Program-made: the position numbers and the translations under genes
Notes under the pieces: model-generated
Seen by the model: only the letters and a program-made list of their open reading frames with translations
The model's database searches: none
Told to the model about the DNA's origin: nothing
Source of the DNA: Fimbriimonadaceae bacterium
GTDB lineage: Bacteria; Armatimonadota; Fimbriimonadia; Fimbriimonadales; Fimbriimonadaceae
DNA: 32,475 bases
Reading direction: 5' to 3'
Assembly: GCA_025455775.1 (NCBI GenBank)
Contig: JALOLT010000017.1
Span: forward strand, 1 to 32,475
Shown: one piece after another, positions 23,554 through 32,475 of the stretch
Layout: each line of letters opens with the position of its first letter
Position numbering within the stretch: the stretch's first letter is position 1

Positions 23554-24762
23554 TTACGCGTAGACCTTGGTGATCGTGCCAGCACCGACGGTGCGGCCGC
23601 CTTCGCGGATCGCGAACTTCGAACCCTCTTCCATAGCGATCGGGTTGATGAGTTCAACGGTCATCACGATGTTCTCGCCAGGCATAACCATTTCGACACC
23701 GGTTGGCAGGTTGAGCGTTCCGGTAACGTCAGTTGTGCGGAAGTAGAACTGAGGTCGGTATCCGTTGGTGAACGGCGTATGGCGACCGCCTTCTTCCTTG
23801 GAAAGGACGTAAACCTGGGCATCAAACTTCGTGTGGGGCTTGATGGATCCTGGCTTGCAGATAACCATGCCTCGCTCGATGTCGGTTCGGCCGATACCAC
23901 GGAGGAGCAAACCGACGTTGTCGCCAGCTTGGCACTCATCCAGCAGCTTTCGGAACATTTCGACTCCGGTACAGGTGGTCTTGCGAGTCTCGCGAATTCC
24001 GACGATTTCGACTTCAGTGTTAACCTGGAGTCTGCCTCGCTCAACGCGGCCGGTGGCAACCGTACCACGACCAGTGATGGTGAAGACGTCTTCCACCGCG
24101 CAGAGGAACGGCTTGTCGACATCTCGCTCTGGGTTAGGAATGAAGCTGTCCACAGCATCCATCAGGTCAGTGATCGACTTCACGTTGTCGTCTTCGTAGT
24201 TCACCGTTCCGGCTTCGACTTGGTCGAGAGCCTTTCGGGCGGAACCCTTTACGATCGGTGTGGCGTCGCCATCGAAACCGTAGGTGGTGAGAAGCTCGCG
24301 AATCTCCATCTCGACAAGCTCAATCAGTTCTGCGTCATCCACGAGGTCAGTCTTGTTGACATAAACCACGATGTAAGGGACACCGACCTGGCGGGCGAGC
24401 AGGATGTGCTCTCGCGTCTGGGGCATAGGGCCGTCAGTAGCAGACACAACCAGAATCGCACCGTCCATTTGGGCGGCGCCAGTGATCATGTTCTTGATGA
24501 AGTCAGCGTGGCCAGGGCAGTCGACGTGGGCATAGTGCCTTGTGTCGGTCTCGTACTCCTGGTGCGAAATGTTGATCGTAATACCGCGTGCCTTCTCTTC
24601 AGGCGCCGAGTCGATTTCATCGTATCGGCGGGCTTGGGCGAGGCCCTTGGTTTGTAAGACGCCGGTGATAGCGGCGGTCAGGGTGGTCTTTCCGTGGTCG
24701 ACGTGGCCAATGGTACCAACGTTGACGTGCGGCTTTTTCCTTTCGAACTTAGCTCGTGCCAT
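23554..24762 (-). CDS. tuf: Elongation factor Tu
   Basis: This 402-aa GTPase delivers aminoacyl-tRNA to the ribosome. G-domain motifs are [10 protein letters not shown] (G1), RGITIN (G2), DCPGH (G3), NKTDLVDD (G4) and GSARKALD (G5). Domain 2 begins near [13 protein letters not shown], and domain 3 ends in [13 protein letters not shown]. The length is normal, slightly above that of E. coli. AAAGGACAAACAAC upstream gives a good ribosome binding site for the ATG at 24762. It is not followed by the rest of the str operon; a perfect terminator ends it. A long reading frame on the opposite strand is a codon-usage shadow. Confidence 0.99.
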
Positions 24763-25347
24763 GTTGTTTGTCCTTTTTTCGTCCGGTTTTTACTGCTCAG
24801 GGCCAGAGGCCTTCGCAGAGCCACCATGGTCAAAGTGAACCAAGGCCGGAGATCGATGCTCATGCGCTTTATTGAGTTCGCTACGCTCCGCACAAGCACT
24901 GTATATTGTCACTTCAAAGGGGTCGCCTTCAACCTGGCCTAGGGCTATGGATCAATTGAGCGGGTCTTCCAGCGGTTCGTGGGGCGGTCGTCGTTCATTT
25001 CGAATCTCTCCATAGATATCTGTGATCCTTTGGTTGACCTAGCTCAGAACGACCTGCCCGCCTCCCAGAGTCAACGTTCTTGCCTCCGGTAGCGCTCCGG
25101 GACTGCGCCTTGGTTGGCAGATCCCCGTGGATCGGTGGGGTCTCCCTGGGAGTTGAGGGCGAGGGTGGCAACCGGTCAGCAGAGTCGGAACGCCCTGTCT
25201 CCGAGGCCCGCAGGAATCAACCCGCGAAGGCTGGCTTTTTTCGGTGAAAAGGGTGGCCTTGGGCCATAAAGGGGCTTGGTTAACTGGGACGAGGAAAAAA
25301 CTGCAAAGAGGGAAAACCTACTCCTTTTGCTCATCAAAGGGGTTTGA

Positions 25348-25429
25348 GCGCCCGGGGGCGGCCCGGAGACCAAGATTGGAACCTGGTTCCCTGGTCTTTT
25401 CCGGGCGGGGAGGCCGCGGGCCAGGGCGC
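25348..25429. other. Large nested hairpin upstream of groES
   Basis: Four stems nest around one axis: GCGCCC (25348-25353) with GGGCGC (25424-25429), GCGGCC (25358-25363) with GGCCGC (25412-25417), CGGA (25364-25367) with TCCG (25400-25403), and GACCA (25368-25372) with TGGTC (25392-25396). GGAACC/GGTTCC lies at the tip. No T-run follows on either strand in the right place, so it is not a standard terminator. It may be a structured RNA or DNA element of unknown role. Confidence 0.6.
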
Positions 25430-25558
25430 GCAAACCCGAAAAAAAGATCCCCCGCTCAGAAGCAAGACCCCTGGTCACGGCCGTGGAAACTCACCGCGAA
25501 TGGCCCCTATCGTTGGCACTCTAGTCCTAAGTCTGCTAAAACCTCCCCGCCAAGGACG

Positions 25559-25564
25559 TACAAT
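25559..25564 (+). promoter_or_regulatory. Predicted -10 element of groESL
   Basis: TACAAT at 25559-25564 matches the -10 consensus in five of six positions. It lies just upstream of the CIRCE-like repeat, so transcription would start inside the operator. The -35 region (around 25536-25541, CTAAAA) is weak. Confidence 0.4.
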
Positions 25565-25566
25565 AT

Positions 25567-25593
25567 TTAGCAATCAAAGGCAGCGACTGCTAA
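25567..25593 (+). promoter_or_regulatory. CIRCE-like operator (HrcA binding site) of groESL
   Basis: TTAGCAATC (25567-25575), nine spacer bases, then GACTGCTAA (25585-25593). This is the CIRCE consensus TTAGCACTC-N9-GAGTGCTAA with one matched-position change in each half. The spacing of exactly nine and the position before groES make heat-shock control by an HrcA repressor very likely. hrcA itself is not in the window. Confidence 0.85.
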
Positions 25594-25628
25594 AGTTGCA
25601 GCCCTCACCAGACTGGAGAAAAAACACT

Positions 25629-25919
25629 ATGGCCAATATTCGCCCCTTAGGAGACAAGGTCGTCGTCGAGCTGATGGAAGCCGAAGAGAAGACCGCCGGC
25701 GGCATCCTGCTGCCCGATTCTGCAAAGAAGAAGCCGACCGAAGGAAAGATCGTCGCAGTAGGAGCAGGTCGAGTCCTCGAAACCGGCGAGCGCAATGCCC
25801 TCACCGTGAAGGTCGGAGATAAGGTGCTCTTTAGCAAGTACGGCGGAAATGAAGTGACCGTCGACGGCAAAGAGTACACGATCCTCGACGAAGACCAAAT
25901 CTACGCCATCGTCAACTAA
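25629..25919 (+). CDS. groES: Co-chaperonin GroES
   Basis: This 96-aa protein forms the heptameric lid of the GroEL chamber. Family marks are [33 protein letters not shown] with its mobile loop (about 16-33), [25 protein letters not shown] and the C-terminal [15 protein letters not shown] lies nine bases before the ATG at 25629, so a much longer in-frame extension upstream is not used. It is followed by groEL after 39 bases in the same operon, under the CIRCE-like operator. Confidence 0.98.
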
Positions 25920-25943
25920 ATCCTCTCAGACACACACTAGTAG

Positions 25944-27584
<1,641 letters not shown>

Positions 27585-27604
27585 AAGTCAGGTCACGCAA
27601 AATC

Positions 27605-27636
27605 AAGGCCTCCGGCAGTAGCCGGAGGCCTTTTTT
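27605..27636 (+). terminator. Rho-independent terminator of groESL
   Basis: GGCCTCCGG (27607-27615) pairs with CCGGAGGCC (27622-27630) around a 6-base loop, followed by six T. It lies 22 bases after the groEL stop and insulates the CRISPR locus from groESL transcription. Confidence 0.95.
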
Positions 27637-27703
27637 ACTGGGTCGATCTCACAGACCAGAGCCGTTGCTCCTGGACCCCTTAACCACCCACCCTTAAGAA
27701 ACG

Positions 27704-27727
27704 AAAAACGCTCTCGTTTGAGAGCGT
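27704..27727 (-). terminator. Rho-independent terminator of tracrRNA
   Basis: An 8-bp perfect stem (ACGCTCTC with GAGAGCGT), a 4-base loop, and TTTTT on the minus strand at 27708-27704. In tracrRNAs such a hairpin also contacts Cas9. Confidence 0.9.
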
Positions 27728-27829
27728 CATCGATTGACTCTTTCGAACCATTTTATCGTTGCCCCGGAGGGCATGTCCTACGGTTTTTCTACCTTGTTGA
27801 GAAAGAACTCCCGCAAGCTCTGATCTGAT
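27704..27829 (-). ncRNA. tracrRNA of the type II-C CRISPR-Cas9 system
   Basis: On the minus strand the anti-repeat lies at about 27829-27793. Its core (27829-27812) is identical to 18 bases of the repeat unit at 32416-32451. The next bases pair with the repeat's first ten (GCTGGGAAAG) with one wobble and one mismatch. Downstream are a small hairpin (GGT/ACC, 27793-27782), a TGCCC/GGGCA hairpin (27773-27760), and a terminal stem ACGCTCTC/GAGAGCGT (27727-27708 region) followed by five T. A possible -10, TATTAT, lies at 27833-27828, which would start the RNA near 27821 and give about 118 nt. It pairs with crRNA and scaffolds Cas9. Order and ends are predicted, not measured. Confidence 0.88.
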
Positions 27830-27834
27830 AATAT
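27826..27834 (+). promoter_or_regulatory. Predicted extended -10 promoter of cas9, inside the degenerate repeat
   Basis: TGATAATAT on the plus strand fits the extended -10 form TG-n-TATAAT with two changes. The same place in the true repeat reads TGATATACT. Transcription would begin near 27841, about 34 bases before the cas9 ATG. No good -35 is needed for this promoter type and none is seen. Confidence 0.5.
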
Positions 27835-27874
27835 TCAGTTTGGCACGACGACGTGCAAAAGTCAAGGGTAAGTC

Positions 27875-30800
27875 ATGAAATACGAAATCGGACTCGATCT
27901 CGGAACGTCTTCCGTAGGTTGGGCAGTCATCCAAGTTAACGACGACATGGAACCAGTCGACCTCGTCGATCTCGGCTCGCGCCACTTCGAGGAAGTGCTA
28001 GAAAGCAAAGGAAAGAAGCTGAAGAACGAAAAGCGGAGACAGATGCGGGCTCTGCGCCGCAACATAGCACGACGGAGAGCCCGGAAAAGGGCCGTCCGTC
28101 ATGTGCTGGTTGATGCCAAACTCCTTCCCTCAATCGACGATCCATTTACACAGTCTGAGACCACGCTCGAACCCTACGAACTCCGAGTGAAAGGGCTCAC
28201 TGAACTCCTCACACCCTACGAATTCTCGCGAGCCATCTACCACCTCGCACAGCGCCGTGGCTACAAGTCGAACCGAGGGGCGAAACTGGCATCCCTCGCC
28301 ACAGAACCCGAGCTGAGAGAACTCCTCGCCAATGACTTGGAAGAAGACTCAGAACCAGCCGAGACAAGTCAAAAAGACTCTGCTAAAGAAGAAGACACAG
28401 GAAAAATCCTCGCTGCCATCAAAAGCTTAGCTGCTGAGCTAGAAGGTAAAACACTCGGTCAGTTTTTTCTGAGTGAGCTACAAGCGGGAAAAAAAGTACG
28501 TCGCCGCTACACCCTGCGGTCTATGTACGAGGAAGAATTCGATCGAATCTTCTCGGCACAACAAAAGTTCAACCCTGGTCTTACAGACGATTTACGGGCA
28601 AAACTCTTCCAGGCACTGTTCTTTCAACGCCCGCTTAAAGCGCAGAAGTTTCTTGTCGGCAAGTGCAAGCTGGAACCGACGAAGAAGCGAGCTCAGCTCG
28701 GCACATTGGTCGCCCAGAGGTTCCGGATCTGGCAGGATCTGGCAAATCTCCAACTGACCGATACTGCAACGGGCGAAAAGCGGTTTCTGACTCTAAATGA
28801 AAAGGAAGGCCTTGCGGACCAACTCGAAAAAGTCGCTTCTCTCTCCTGGATCGCCGTTGCCAAGTTGCTCGGCTATAAGAACACAAAGCAAGTTGAATTC
28901 AATTTGCAAACAACATATAAAGAAGGCCTGAGTGGAAACTCAACCGTCAACAAGATCGAGCGCAGAGCACCGGGACTCCTTCCAAGCCTCAATCAAGCCG
29001 AGCAGCAAAGTCTTGTGGAAACCATCCTCACGGCTGAAGACCGAGGCACACTCTACCGAACGCTCCGAAGCAAGTACAAGCTAGACGTTCAACCTGCCTA
29101 TCAACTCGCAATCGTAGAACTGGCTCCCGGTTACGTGCGCCTCAGCAGCAAGGCAATGGAAAAGATGCTTGACCAAATGAGGCAAGGACTCCGACGTACC
29201 GATGCACAAGTTGCTTGCGGGTACGAACCATGGTCAGAAGAAATCCAGAAGGAAACCGAAATCATCGAACCACCGCGCCGGGAGGAAATCACGAGCCCCA
29301 GAGTTAGAAAGGCACTCAACCAAACGCGTCGAATCGTCAACGCCATCATACGTAAAATGGGCGGAGTCCGCCCAACCACCATCCGGATCGAGATGGCCAG
29401 AAGCATGAGCCTTAACAAAAAGGAAAAGGCAAGCCTGGAGAAAGCCCAATCCCTAGGCAAAAAGGAAAATGATGAGGCAAAGAAGGCACTCCAGAAAATG
29501 GGGATTCAAGAGCCGACCTCCTCTGACATCCGCTGGTACCGCCTTGCGAAACAGGTGAACTGGGAATGCCCTTATTCAGGCGCAACGATTCCCCAAGCTC
29601 CCTCTTCGATGAGCCTCTTTCAAGTGGAGCACATTATCCCTCGCGAGATCTCCTTCGATGACTCGTTCAATAATCTCACCCTCTGCCGACAGGATTACAA
29701 CCTGAAGAAAGGGATGAAAACTCCGTTCCAAGCCTTCGGTGGCACTCCAGAGTGGCCAGCCATCGCGGAGAGGATCAACAGATTGACAGGATATGGCTCG
29801 GGTCATAAAAAGCGGCTCTTCCTCGACGAAAGAAATCCAGAACCGAACCAGATGATTGAAAGACAATTGGTTGAAACGCGCTGGATCGTGAAAGAGACAG
29901 CCCAGTTCCTGAGGCCTCTTACCGATAACATCGAGTGCACTAGAGGAGGAACCACCAAGATACTCCGCACAGAGTGGGGCTTAATGGAGGCGCTCTACGG
30001 CATCAACGAAAAGCGGCGGGACGATCTTCGCCACCATGCAGTTGACGCAGTCGCCATCGCCTTTACAACCAGAAGCCTCTTCATGAAGATGACCACGGAA
30101 AGGAAGAAGGAGATCACTGGGCCTCGACCAACTGTTCTTCCTCCTACCCCAACTTGGCTAGTGCCGAAGCTAAAGCGAATGCTGGCAAACCTTGTCGTCA
30201 GCCACGAAACGACGCGCCAAATCGCAGGGGCTCTTCATGAAGAGACAGTCTATGGCAAGCGTGGACCGGGTGAATATCACTACCGAAGGCCTCTGGTGAA
30301 CTTGAAGGCAACGGATCTTGAAAAAGTCATAGATCCTAGCCTCCGGAAGCTCATGAAGCAGGCAAAGGAAGCTGCCAGAGCTAGAGGCGAGAATCATGAA
30401 GACTTCACAAAGCTCTTTGCAGATGGTCTTCCCTACGGAAAGACGATCGCTCGCCGAGCAAGAATTTTGTCCCGAATCACCTCTGCCAAGCAGCTTAATC
30501 CGATCAAGCACGTCGTTTTGGGAAATAACCACCATGTTGCAATTTGGATGAACCCAGAAGATGGGAAGAGAGTTGGAGTTTTCAAGTCAATGATGGAGGC
30601 AGCCAAGGCAGTGAGGCCAGAACGAAACCACACAGAGTCGAAAAAGAAATCCTGTCCCGTTGACCTTACTCCCCCATTTCCGGGAGCCAGGTTCGTAATG
30701 TGGCTTGCCATCAACGACACGATCGAGTTCCAGGGAAAAATCTATCGTGTGCAACAACTCGACTCGACAAACGACCGCCTCTGCCTGCGAGAGATTCAGG

Positions 30801-30919
30801 CAGCTACTGTCAACGACAACAGTCAGAGGGTGCTCAAGAGTATTAACCTCTTGGATTGTCAAAAGCTAGAAGTCGATCTCCTCGGTCAAGTCAGGATCTA
30901 CCCAGAAGGCAAGTTATGA
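27875..30919 (+). CDS. cas9: CRISPR-associated endonuclease Cas9, type II-C
   Basis: This 1014-aa RNA-guided DNA endonuclease is in the compact II-C size range. RuvC-I is YEIGLDLGTSSVGWAV with D8. An arginine-rich bridge helix follows (about 48-77, KNEKRRQMRALRRNIARRRA). The recognition lobe spans about 80-490. RuvC-II is IRIEMARS with E506. The HNH domain has H586 in VEHIIPRE and N600 in FNNLTLC, plus YNLKKG. RuvC-III is LRHHAVDAVAIA with H720/H721 and D724. The rest (about 780-1014) is the wedge/PAM-interacting region, without a family signature I recognise. All nuclease residues are intact. The start at 27875 has AAGGG six bases upstream, and the end overlaps cas1 (ATGA). Confidence 0.97.
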   Translation: MKYEIGLDLGTSSVGWAVIQVNDDMEPVDLVDLGSRHFEEVLESKGKKLKNEKRRQMRALRRNIARRRARKRAVRHVLVDAKLLPSIDDPFTQSETTLEPYELRVKGLTELLTPYEFSRAIYHLAQRRGYKSNRGAKLASLATEPELRELLANDLEEDSEPAETSQKDSAKEEDTGKILAAIKSLAAELEGKTLGQFFLSELQAGKKVRRRYTLRSMYEEEFDRIFSAQQKFNPGLTDDLRAKLFQALFFQRPLKAQKFLVGKCKLEPTKKRAQLGTLVAQRFRIWQDLANLQLTDTATGEKRFLTLNEKEGLADQLEKVASLSWIAVAKLLGYKNTKQVEFNLQTTYKEGLSGNSTVNKIERRAPGLLPSLNQAEQQSLVETILTAEDRGTLYRTLRSKYKLDVQPAYQLAIVELAPGYVRLSSKAMEKMLDQMRQGLRRTDAQVACGYEPWSEEIQKETEIIEPPRREEITSPRVRKALNQTRRIVNAIIRKMGGVRPTTIRIEMARSMSLNKKEKASLEKAQSLGKKENDEAKKALQKMGIQEPTSSDIRWYRLAKQVNWECPYSGATIPQAPSSMSLFQVEHIIPREISFDDSFNNLTLCRQDYNLKKGMKTPFQAFGGTPEWPAIAERINRLTGYGSGHKKRLFLDERNPEPNQMIERQLVETRWIVKETAQFLRPLTDNIECTRGGTTKILRTEWGLMEALYGINEKRRDDLRHHAVDAVAIAFTTRSLFMKMTTERKKEITGPRPTVLPPTPTWLVPKLKRMLANLVVSHETTRQIAGALHEETVYGKRGPGEYHYRRPLVNLKATDLEKVIDPSLRKLMKQAKEAARARGENHEDFTKLFADGLPYGKTIARRARILSRITSAKQLNPIKHVVLGNNHHVAIWMNPEDGKRVGVFKSMMEAAKAVRPERNHTESKKKSCPVDLTPPFPGARFVMWLAINDTIEFQGKIYRVQQLDSTNDRLCLREIQAATVNDNSQRVLKSINLLDCQKLEVDLLGQVRIYPEGKL

Positions 30920-31809
30920 GCCTAAGGGTGCTCTCTCTCGTTGGGCCAGGTTTTCTGGCCCTGCAAGATCTGGCAGTGACTTTCTCCCGTCAGAACGAGC
31001 TCGTGGCAAAGATTGCCCTAGAAGACCTTGCGATGATCGTCGTAGACGGGCCTGATCTTGTAATGAGCCACTCTCTTCTCTCTGCCTGTGCCGAATCGAA
31101 GGTGGTTCTTGTCACCAGCAACGAAAAGCACCTCCCCAGCGGCGTCCTGCTCCCTCTTGCTGGCCACACGACCCACACTGCTATCCTGAGACAGCAGATT
31201 CAGGCGACGAAGCCATCTATTAAGCGAACTTGGCAGACCCTGGTTCGCATGAAAATCCTTGCCCAGGCAGGCCATGTCGCTTTCCAAGGTGGCGATCCAA
31301 CCAGACTTTGTTCCCTCGCTGCCCAAGTGCGGAGCGGAGACCCTGACAATCGCGAAGCAGTGGCGGCAGCTCTCTACTTTGAACTCATTTTCGGGGAGGA
31401 TTTTCAAAGGGAACGTGATGCCGAAGGGGTTAACGGACTCCTTAACTATGGCTACGCGGTTCTGCGGGCGGCAGTTGCCAGGGCGATTGTTGGGGCAGGA
31501 CTCCATCCCGCTCTCGGGGTTCATCATCAAAATCAGTACAACTCGCTTTGCCTGGCCGATGATGCCATGGAGCCCCTTCGACCCCTTATTGATCAGGTGT
31601 CGCGGCGCATCTTAGACGAACAGGGGGAATCGACTAGTGTAAATCCCCACACCAAGCGACTCCTGATCCAGAGTTTGGGTCGAAAAGTGACTTTTGAGGA
31701 TCAGTCCTATCCTCTTCTTGTCGCCCTCGACCGCTTTGGGGCAAGCCTGCGGCGCGCTATCTGTGAAGGACAAGACCTTCAAGTGCCGAGAATCATCTTT
31801 GAGGAATAG
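30916..31809 (+). CDS. cas1: CRISPR-associated integrase Cas1, type II
   Basis: This 297-aa protein is the spacer-integrating enzyme. Its metal ligands are visible as E147 in DNREAVAAALYF, H203 in GVHHQNQYN, and D216 in DDAMEPLRP, which matches the usual D-L-x-E-P-F-R-P box. H203 to D216 are 13 residues apart, as in E. coli Cas1. An N-terminal beta domain (about 1-95) precedes the helical catalytic domain. The ATG at 30916 overlaps the cas9 stop (ATGA). A longer frame begins 20 codons upstream inside cas9 but is not needed. It acts with Cas2 as a complex. Confidence 0.97.
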   Translation: MSLRVLSLVGPGFLALQDLAVTFSRQNELVAKIALEDLAMIVVDGPDLVMSHSLLSACAESKVVLVTSNEKHLPSGVLLPLAGHTTHTAILRQQIQATKPSIKRTWQTLVRMKILAQAGHVAFQGGDPTRLCSLAAQVRSGDPDNREAVAAALYFELIFGEDFQRERDAEGVNGLLNYGYAVLRAAVARAIVGAGLHPALGVHHQNQYNSLCLADDAMEPLRPLIDQVSRRILDEQGESTSVNPHTKRLLIQSLGRKVTFEDQSYPLLVALDRFGASLRRAICEGQDLQVPRIIFEE

Positions 31810-32324
31810 TGATTCCTGGCTACCGACTCATGTGGCTCATGGTCACCTTTGATCTCCCTGTCGCAACCAAACAGAACAAGAGAGATTACCGACGCTTCGT
31901 GGACTTCCTCGAAGACGATGGCTATTCGCGTCTTCAGTACAGCATCTACGTACGTCCGACGGCGACACTGGAAAACACTGATGTCCATGCAAAGCGAGTC
32001 GCGGACAACATTCCCCCCCTCGGAGAAGTGCGAGTCTTTAGACTCACAGATAAACAGTGGGCGAGAACAGATTGCTACCATCACGCCAAACTTGGCAAGC
32101 CGGAACTTCCTCCAGAACAGTTCACGTTTTTCGATGAGGCAGATGAGGTGATTCCCTATCCCCCTGTCGCGGTAGACGGTCTTGATTTGATCGACCTTGA
32201 GGTTCCGATTTCCATGGTGGCCGAGACACGAATGCCCTATCCTGCCCACGGAATTTCAAAAACAGTCAAGAGATCCAAAAAGAAAGCTGCTCCTGATCGC
32301 CAGGCGCAGCTGTTTTCTGATTAG
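31809..32324 (+). CDS. cas2: CRISPR-associated Cas2 with long C-terminal tail
   Basis: This protein is Cas2 by its first strand, LMWLMVTFDLPVATKQNKRDY, with the conserved Asp, and by LQYSIYVRPTATLEN. The ferredoxin-like core ends near residue 105, where most Cas2 proteins stop. Here about 65 more residues follow: an acidic/proline stretch (FFDEADEVIPYPPVAVDGLDL) and a lysine-rich segment (VKRSKKKAAPDR). The last residues are QAQLFSD, in which Q165-x-x-L168-F169 fits the sliding-clamp-binding pattern. The GTG at 31809 shares a base with the cas1 stop (TAGTG); an ATG at 31830 is also possible and would give 164 residues. It is structural in the Cas1-Cas2 complex. Confidence 0.94.
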   Translation: MIPGYRLMWLMVTFDLPVATKQNKRDYRRFVDFLEDDGYSRLQYSIYVRPTATLENTDVHAKRVADNIPPLGEVRVFRLTDKQWARTDCYHHAKLGKPELPPEQFTFFDEADEVIPYPPVAVDGLDLIDLEVPISMVAETRMPYPAHGISKTVKRSKKKAAPDRQAQLFSD

Positions 32325-32333
32325 CGAAATTCT

Positions 32334-32360
32334 AAAAAAACGCTTTGGACTGTATCCAAA
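32334..32360 (-). terminator. Rho-independent terminator of the CRISPR array transcript
   Basis: TTTGGA (32360-32355) pairs with TCCAAA (32349-32344) around a 5-base loop on the minus strand, followed by GCG and seven T (32340-32334). Only the minus strand has the T-run, so it stops transcription coming from the array toward cas2. Confidence 0.7.
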
Positions 32361-32392
32361 AACGGGAATTGAGCCAATTTTTGCTCTGTCCC

Positions 32393-32412
32393 CCCGCCTC
32401 AAAAGAGTCGGG
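32393..32412. other. Short hairpin next to the terminal CRISPR repeat
   Basis: CCCG-c-CTC (32393-32400) pairs with GAG-t-CGGG (32405-32412) around AAAA. It sits three bases from the repeat boundary. It may block read-through or mark the array end; no T-run follows closely. Confidence 0.45.
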
Positions 32413-32415
32413 AGG

Positions 32416-32475
32416 AGTATATCAGATCAGAGCTTGCGAGCCTTTCCCAGCATATCTCTAGTGAGAGAGTAATCC
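32416..32475 (-). CRISPR. Terminal CRISPR repeat (32416-32451) and start of the first visible spacer (32452-32475)
   Basis: Only one repeat unit is inside the window, so it is recognised by homology to the tracrRNA anti-repeat, not by repetition. In crRNA sense (minus strand) it begins GCTGGGAAAGGCTCGCAAGC and ends CTGATCTGATATACT, 36 bases, a typical II-C length. Its bases 13-30 are identical to the anti-repeat complement at 27812-27829. It ends in the extended -10 TGATATACT. The 24 bases to the window end would be the spacer nearest cas2. Boundaries are set by the pairing and the usual 36-nt length and could move by a few bases. The array continues past the window. Confidence 0.8.

What the first reader, a model, noticed from the sequence alone, without database searches (positions are those of the whole stretch)
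27704..32475. Complete compact type II-C CRISPR-Cas9 locus with tracrRNA and array orientation readable from sequence
Cas9 (1014 aa, all RuvC and HNH catalytic residues present), cas1 and cas2 form a coupled operon. A minus-strand tracrRNA lies upstream, and a matching repeat sits at the window edge. No csn2 or cas4 is present. The size is at the small end for Cas9. The host looks like a little-studied phylum, so guide RNA and PAM are probably uncharacterised.
Basis: partly seen in the sequence, partly recalled or inferred. Interest (0 to 1): 0.82.

Follow-up and report, generated by a model that had tools for sequence, protein, structure and literature searches.

The report
Ordinary type II-C CRISPR-Cas9, array cut off
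This stretch carries a normal, intact-looking bacterial Cas9 immune system of the compact II-C type, with its guide-RNA partner gene, but the assembled DNA stops inside its memory array, so it is a new member of a well-known kind.

Summary
Cas9 (27875-30919, 1014 aa), Cas1 (ATG 30916-31809) and Cas2 (GTG 31809-32324) overlap head to tail. All RuvC and HNH catalytic residues align with Nme1Cas9. A minus-strand tracrRNA (about 27830-27700) ends in a terminator. One 36-nt repeat (32416-32451) plus 24 nt of spacer sit at the contig end. The repeat pairs with the tracrRNA anti-repeat at -48 kcal/mol, better than with 15 foreign anti-repeats.

'Complete' is too strong: the window is the whole contig, and no further repeat exists in the held assembly. 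About 18 related loci share the gene order, 36-nt repeats and roughly 30-nt spacers, most with the same tracrRNA placement. In about eight of them the contig also ends in the array. The closest Cas9s are 50-51% identical; the nearest solved structures are Nme1Cas9, ThermoCas9 and HpaCas9.

So this is an ordinary type II-C system from an unnamed host. The guide scaffold is readable. The PAM is not: no spacer matched.

In passing: type II-C Cas2 tails carry an invariant Q-x-x-x-F (12 of 12 aligned; 0 of 30 other Cas2 hits), like a sliding-clamp-binding motif. Type II-A has R for Q, so a structural strand remains a good rival.

The parts
27875..30919 (+). cas9, type II-C effector, 1014 aa
   Evidence: TIGR01865 602 bits; catalytic residues D8/E506/H721/D724 and H586/N609 invariant in 18 homologues; Foldseek nearest Nme1Cas9
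30916..31809 (+). cas1, 297 aa; ATG overlaps the cas9 stop (ATGA)
   Evidence: TIGR03639 and PADLOC Cas1_II
31809..32324 (+). cas2, 171 aa; GTG overlaps the cas1 TAG; core residues 8-85, then a low-confidence tail with Q104-x-x-x-F108
   Evidence: TIGR01573, PADLOC Cas2_II; AlphaFold; alignment
27700..27830 (-). tracrRNA (ends predicted, not mapped)
   Evidence: fold z-score -3.9; same position and strand in relatives
27796..27830 (-). anti-repeat of the tracrRNA
   Evidence: duplex with the edge repeat -48.0 kcal/mol, best of 16 anti-repeats
27702..27728 (-). intrinsic terminator of the tracrRNA (9-bp stem, then T-run)
27777..27817 (-). tracrRNA helix B:B' (27817-27811 with 27783-27777), alternative to crRNA pairing
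   Evidence: 96.8% of cells paired in 11 tracrRNAs
32416..32451 (-). CRISPR repeat, cas2-proximal; crRNA strand GCTGGGAAAGGCTCGCAAGCTCTGATCTGATATACT
   Evidence: 36 nt, same kind as relatives' repeats; 3' end is -10-like
32452..32475 (-). 24 nt of the adjoining spacer, cut by the contig end
   Evidence: occurs only here in the genome
32390..32415 (-). hairpin just 3' of the array on the crRNA strand, possible array terminator
   Evidence: fold; hairpins at the same place in several relatives

Best explanation
A chromosomal type II-C CRISPR-Cas9 adaptive immune system placed just after groEL. Cas1-Cas2 insert spacers of about 30 bp into an array downstream of cas2. The array and the tracrRNA are both transcribed on the strand opposite the cas genes. 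The crRNA repeat pairs with the tracrRNA anti-repeat, Cas9 binds this duplex, and HNH and RuvC cut DNA that matches the spacer next to an unknown PAM. As in Neisseria meningitidis, each repeat probably ends in its own -10 promoter element, so that each crRNA can start inside its spacer. Shown from sequence: the genes, catalytic residues, tracrRNA, one repeat and their pairing. Inferred: array length, crRNA start sites, PAM and activity.
For: Families; catalytic residues and alignment; structure model pLDDT 78 with II-C Cas9s among the best PDB matches; repeat:anti-repeat duplex -48.0 kcal/mol, rank 1 of 16; same layout in relatives with real arrays of 3 to 37 repeats; terminator and fold; -10-like repeat end TAnAnT in 18 of 19 repeats, mean 4.5 of 6 consensus matches against at most 3.0 elsewhere in the repeat; repeat-embedded promoters in N. 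meningitidis (PMC5052741).
Against: Only one repeat is visible. It differs from relatives' GTTGGGG start (GCTGGGA), so it could be a decayed terminal repeat. No protospacer was found for the 24-nt spacer piece or for four spacers of relatives.
Confidence: 0.94

Rival explanations
1. A decayed or solitary locus: the genes survive but the array is reduced to one or two degenerate repeats, so the system no longer provides immunity.
For: One repeat only in the held assembly; its 5' end departs from relatives' GTTGGGG, whereas their cas2-proximal repeats are nearly all canonical.
Against: All three ORFs and all catalytic residues are intact; the repeat still pairs with the anti-repeat over most of its length; the contig ends inside the array in about eight relatives too, the usual failure of short-read assembly at repeats.
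Confidence: 0.05
2. Another type II subtype (II-A, II-B or II-D) that only looks like II-C because the contig ends before csn2 or cas4.
For: The region beyond 32475 is unseen.
Against: The array already begins after cas2, where csn2 or cas4 would stand; relatives show the same order; the Cas9d model scores 139.8 against a cut-off of 375; Nme1Cas9 is the best solved match.
Confidence: 0.01

Closest known systems
Neisseria meningitidis Nme1Cas9 type II-C system
   Same: Gene content, Cas9 domain order and catalytic residues; -10-like end of the repeat (Nme repeat-embedded promoters: PMC5052741)
   Different: About 22-24% identity in the structure alignment; different repeat and tracrRNA sequence; PAM unknown; Cas2 has an added tail
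ThermoCas9 / GeoCas9 / HpaCas9
   Same: Compact II-C Cas9s, same overall fold
   Different: About 22-23% identity; different guide RNA
Uncharacterised II-C systems of the same family (L040, L041, L045)
   Same: Same operon, tracrRNA position, repeat family and Cas2 tail; window, L040 and L041 form a fully supported clade
   Different: Cas9 about 50% identical; the L045 cas9 is split between two frames

Membership tests
Type II CRISPR-Cas | Cas9 with RuvC and HNH nuclease residues | tested here: met
Type II CRISPR-Cas | tracrRNA whose anti-repeat pairs with the CRISPR repeat | tested here: met
Type II CRISPR-Cas | Array of at least two repeats with spacers | tested here: inconclusive
   One repeat and 24 nt of spacer; the contig ends; no other copy in the assembly; arrays in relatives
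Subtype II-C | Only cas9, cas1, cas2; no csn2, no cas4 | tested here: met
   Met up to the contig end, where the array has begun; same gene order in relatives
Subtype II-C | Cas9 sequence closest to II-C enzymes | tested here: met
   Best solved matches Nme1Cas9, HpaCas9, ThermoCas9, GeoCas9; no tree with reference Cas9s of all subtypes was built
Subtype II-C | crRNA promoters inside repeats (as in N. meningitidis; not universal) | tested here: inconclusive
   -10-like 3' ends; no transcript data
Subtype II-D (Cas9d) | Score above the NF049971 cut-off | tested here: not met
   139.8 against 375 bits
Subtype II-A | csn2 in the operon | tested here: not met
   cas2 is followed by the repeat

The most novel reading that the evidence does not exclude
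The C-terminal tail of Cas2 in this and other type II-C systems is a sliding-clamp (DnaN) binding motif (Q-phi-x-[L/F]-F), which would tether Cas1-Cas2 to replication or repair sites and help explain where spacers are captured.
Probability: 0.18. Interest if true: 0.6.

Novelty: new member of a known kind. Interest (0 to 1): 0.22.

Why it matters
It adds a divergent compact Cas9 (nearest held homologue 51% identical) with a readable guide scaffold, of some use for tool mining once a PAM is measured. The biology is that of a well-studied system. The side observation on Cas2 tails, if confirmed, would bear on the open question of how Cas1-Cas2 find DNA.

Tried and rejected
(1) Further array copies elsewhere in the assembly: none. 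(2) Protospacers: the 24-nt spacer piece and four spacers of relatives gave no exact match in IMG/VR; no self-target; so no PAM. (5) Rfam: no hit. (6) The conserved B:B' helix in the tracrRNA was first read as a pseudoknot of the guide complex. In the window and most relatives the crRNA pairs with B, so an alternative form of the free tracrRNA is at least as likely. (7) Literature on Cas2 and clamp motifs: no paper joining the two was found in the held library.

Full report
OBSERVATION. The window is contig C27 of a 2.99-Mb, 170-contig genome (98% complete), from its first to its last base. cas9 runs 27875-30919 (1014 aa). The ORF tool starts cas1 at a TTG (30856), but an in-frame ATG at 30916 overlaps the cas9 stop as ATGA and is the likelier start (297 aa). 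cas2 starts with GTG at 31809, overlapping the cas1 TAG. NCBIfam gives TIGR01865 (Cas9, 602 bits), TIGR03639 (type II Cas1) and TIGR01573 (Cas2). PADLOC gives Cas9, Cas1_II and Cas2_II. Aligned with Nme1Cas9 the query has D8, E506, H721, D724 (RuvC) and H586 (HNH). These are invariant in 18 homologues together with N609.

RNA PARTS. The last 60 bases hold one 36-nt repeat, 32416-32451, and 24 nt of the next spacer. Its crRNA strand is the minus strand. The best partner of this repeat anywhere on either strand of the window, apart from its own complement, is the minus strand at 27796-27835 (-48.0 kcal/mol against mean -17.2, sd 4.2). Against anti-repeats of 15 relatives its own ranks first; the mean of the others is -26.5. 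The minus-strand transcript folds better than shuffles (z -3.9) and ends in a 9-bp terminator hairpin, 27728-27707, with a T-run. A -35 TTGACT with a 17-nt spacer and a poor -10 can be read upstream by eye; the promoter scan did not list it, so the tracrRNA start is not settled. A hairpin follows the repeat on the crRNA strand, between array and cas2, as in several relatives.

RELATIVES. A search of 201 related genomes, the own genome included, found matches in 30, a few of them to HNH stretches only. About 18 loci with flanks show cas9-cas1-cas2-array, 36-nt repeats (37 in two) and spacers of about 30 nt, most with the anti-repeat just upstream of cas9 on the opposite strand. The three closest Cas9s (L040, L041, L045) are about 50% identical; window, L040 and L041 form a fully supported clade. 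In about eight relatives the contig also ends within the array, so the cut here is most simply an assembly failure at repeats. It is not evidence that the array is absent.

MECHANISM. Standard type II-C immunity. The crRNA strand opposite to the cas genes, and repeats that end in TAnAnT in 18 of 19 cases (mean 4.5 of 6 matches to TATAAT at the very end of the repeat, at most 3.0 elsewhere), point to promoters inside the repeats, as reported for N. meningitidis (PMC5052741). In the window the repeat ends TGATATACT, an extended -10. This step is inferred. The -10-like end could also be kept for pairing or for Cas1-Cas2 recognition.

PLACEMENT. An AlphaFold model (pLDDT 78, pTM 0.49, 18-row alignment) matches Nme1Cas9, ThermoCas9 and HpaCas9 best, with SaCas9 and GeoCas9 further down, at 20-24% identity. 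TM-scores are 0.4-0.56, as expected for a multi-domain protein with uncertain lobe positions. Cas9d is excluded by score. The listed plasmid-borne homologues are at most about 29% identical. Nothing described is near-identical in the collections searched, but these do not include all deposited Cas9s.

SIDE OBSERVATIONS. (a) Cas2 of the window and its closest relatives has a tail of about 60 residues after the usual end. (b) In 12 aligned type II-C Cas2s the only invariant residues beyond the core are Q104 and F108, in the frame Q-[L/F]-x-[F/L]-F, in a region with low model confidence. Further relatives end the same way or nearly so (L046 QLVFS, L047 QVLLL). Three Cas2s from plasmids of Bdellovibrionota and Alphaproteobacteria end NQMVLL, EQYVLF and PQILLF. 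None of 30 other Cas2 hits from the same phylum has it, though two or three of those 30 ORFs may be wrongly picked. The frame resembles the sliding-clamp-binding consensus Q-phi-x-[L/M]-[F/L] (PMC11139829, PMC12309361). Against it: type II-A Cas2s of solved structure have R-[L/I]-V-F-L at the same place, so a strand that contacts Cas1 would explain the hydrophobic residues without any clamp, and phenylalanine at the fourth place is not canonical. (c) The tracrRNA has a conserved helix between the middle of the anti-repeat and the stretch after the first hairpin (96.8% of cells paired, few double changes). It competes with crRNA pairing in the window.

VERDICT. A sound observation and a correct filing, with 'complete' overstated. 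Ordinary in kind; PAM and host unresolved.

Noticed in passing
window 32118-32132 (Cas2 residues 104-108); L048, L052, L053, L099-L101: Type II-C Cas2 tails share a conserved Q-x-x-x-F (QLSFF, QLSLF, QFTFF, QILLF), resembling the DnaN clamp-binding motif; absent from 30 other Cas2 hits of the phylum; type II-A has R in place of Q.
   Followed up: partly
window 32133-32321; L040, L041, L045: Cas2 of this clade carries an extra C-terminal tail of about 60 residues, ending in F-[DE]-FF-[DE] in three relatives and QLFSD in the window.
   Followed up: partly
window 27817-27777, minus strand: Conserved tracrRNA helix between mid-anti-repeat and the stretch after the first hairpin; competes with the crRNA in the window; also visible in most relatives.
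   Followed up: partly
window 32416-32421 and repeats of 17 relatives: Repeats end in a -10-like hexamer, as in the promoter-bearing repeats of N. meningitidis.
   Followed up: partly
L045 2046-5103: cas9 of this relative is split between two overlapping frames; decay or an assembly error.
   Followed up: no
window 23554-27632: The locus follows EF-Tu (minus strand), groES and groEL with a terminator at 27605-27632: a housekeeping neighbourhood, with no sign of a mobile element next to cas9.
   Followed up: partly
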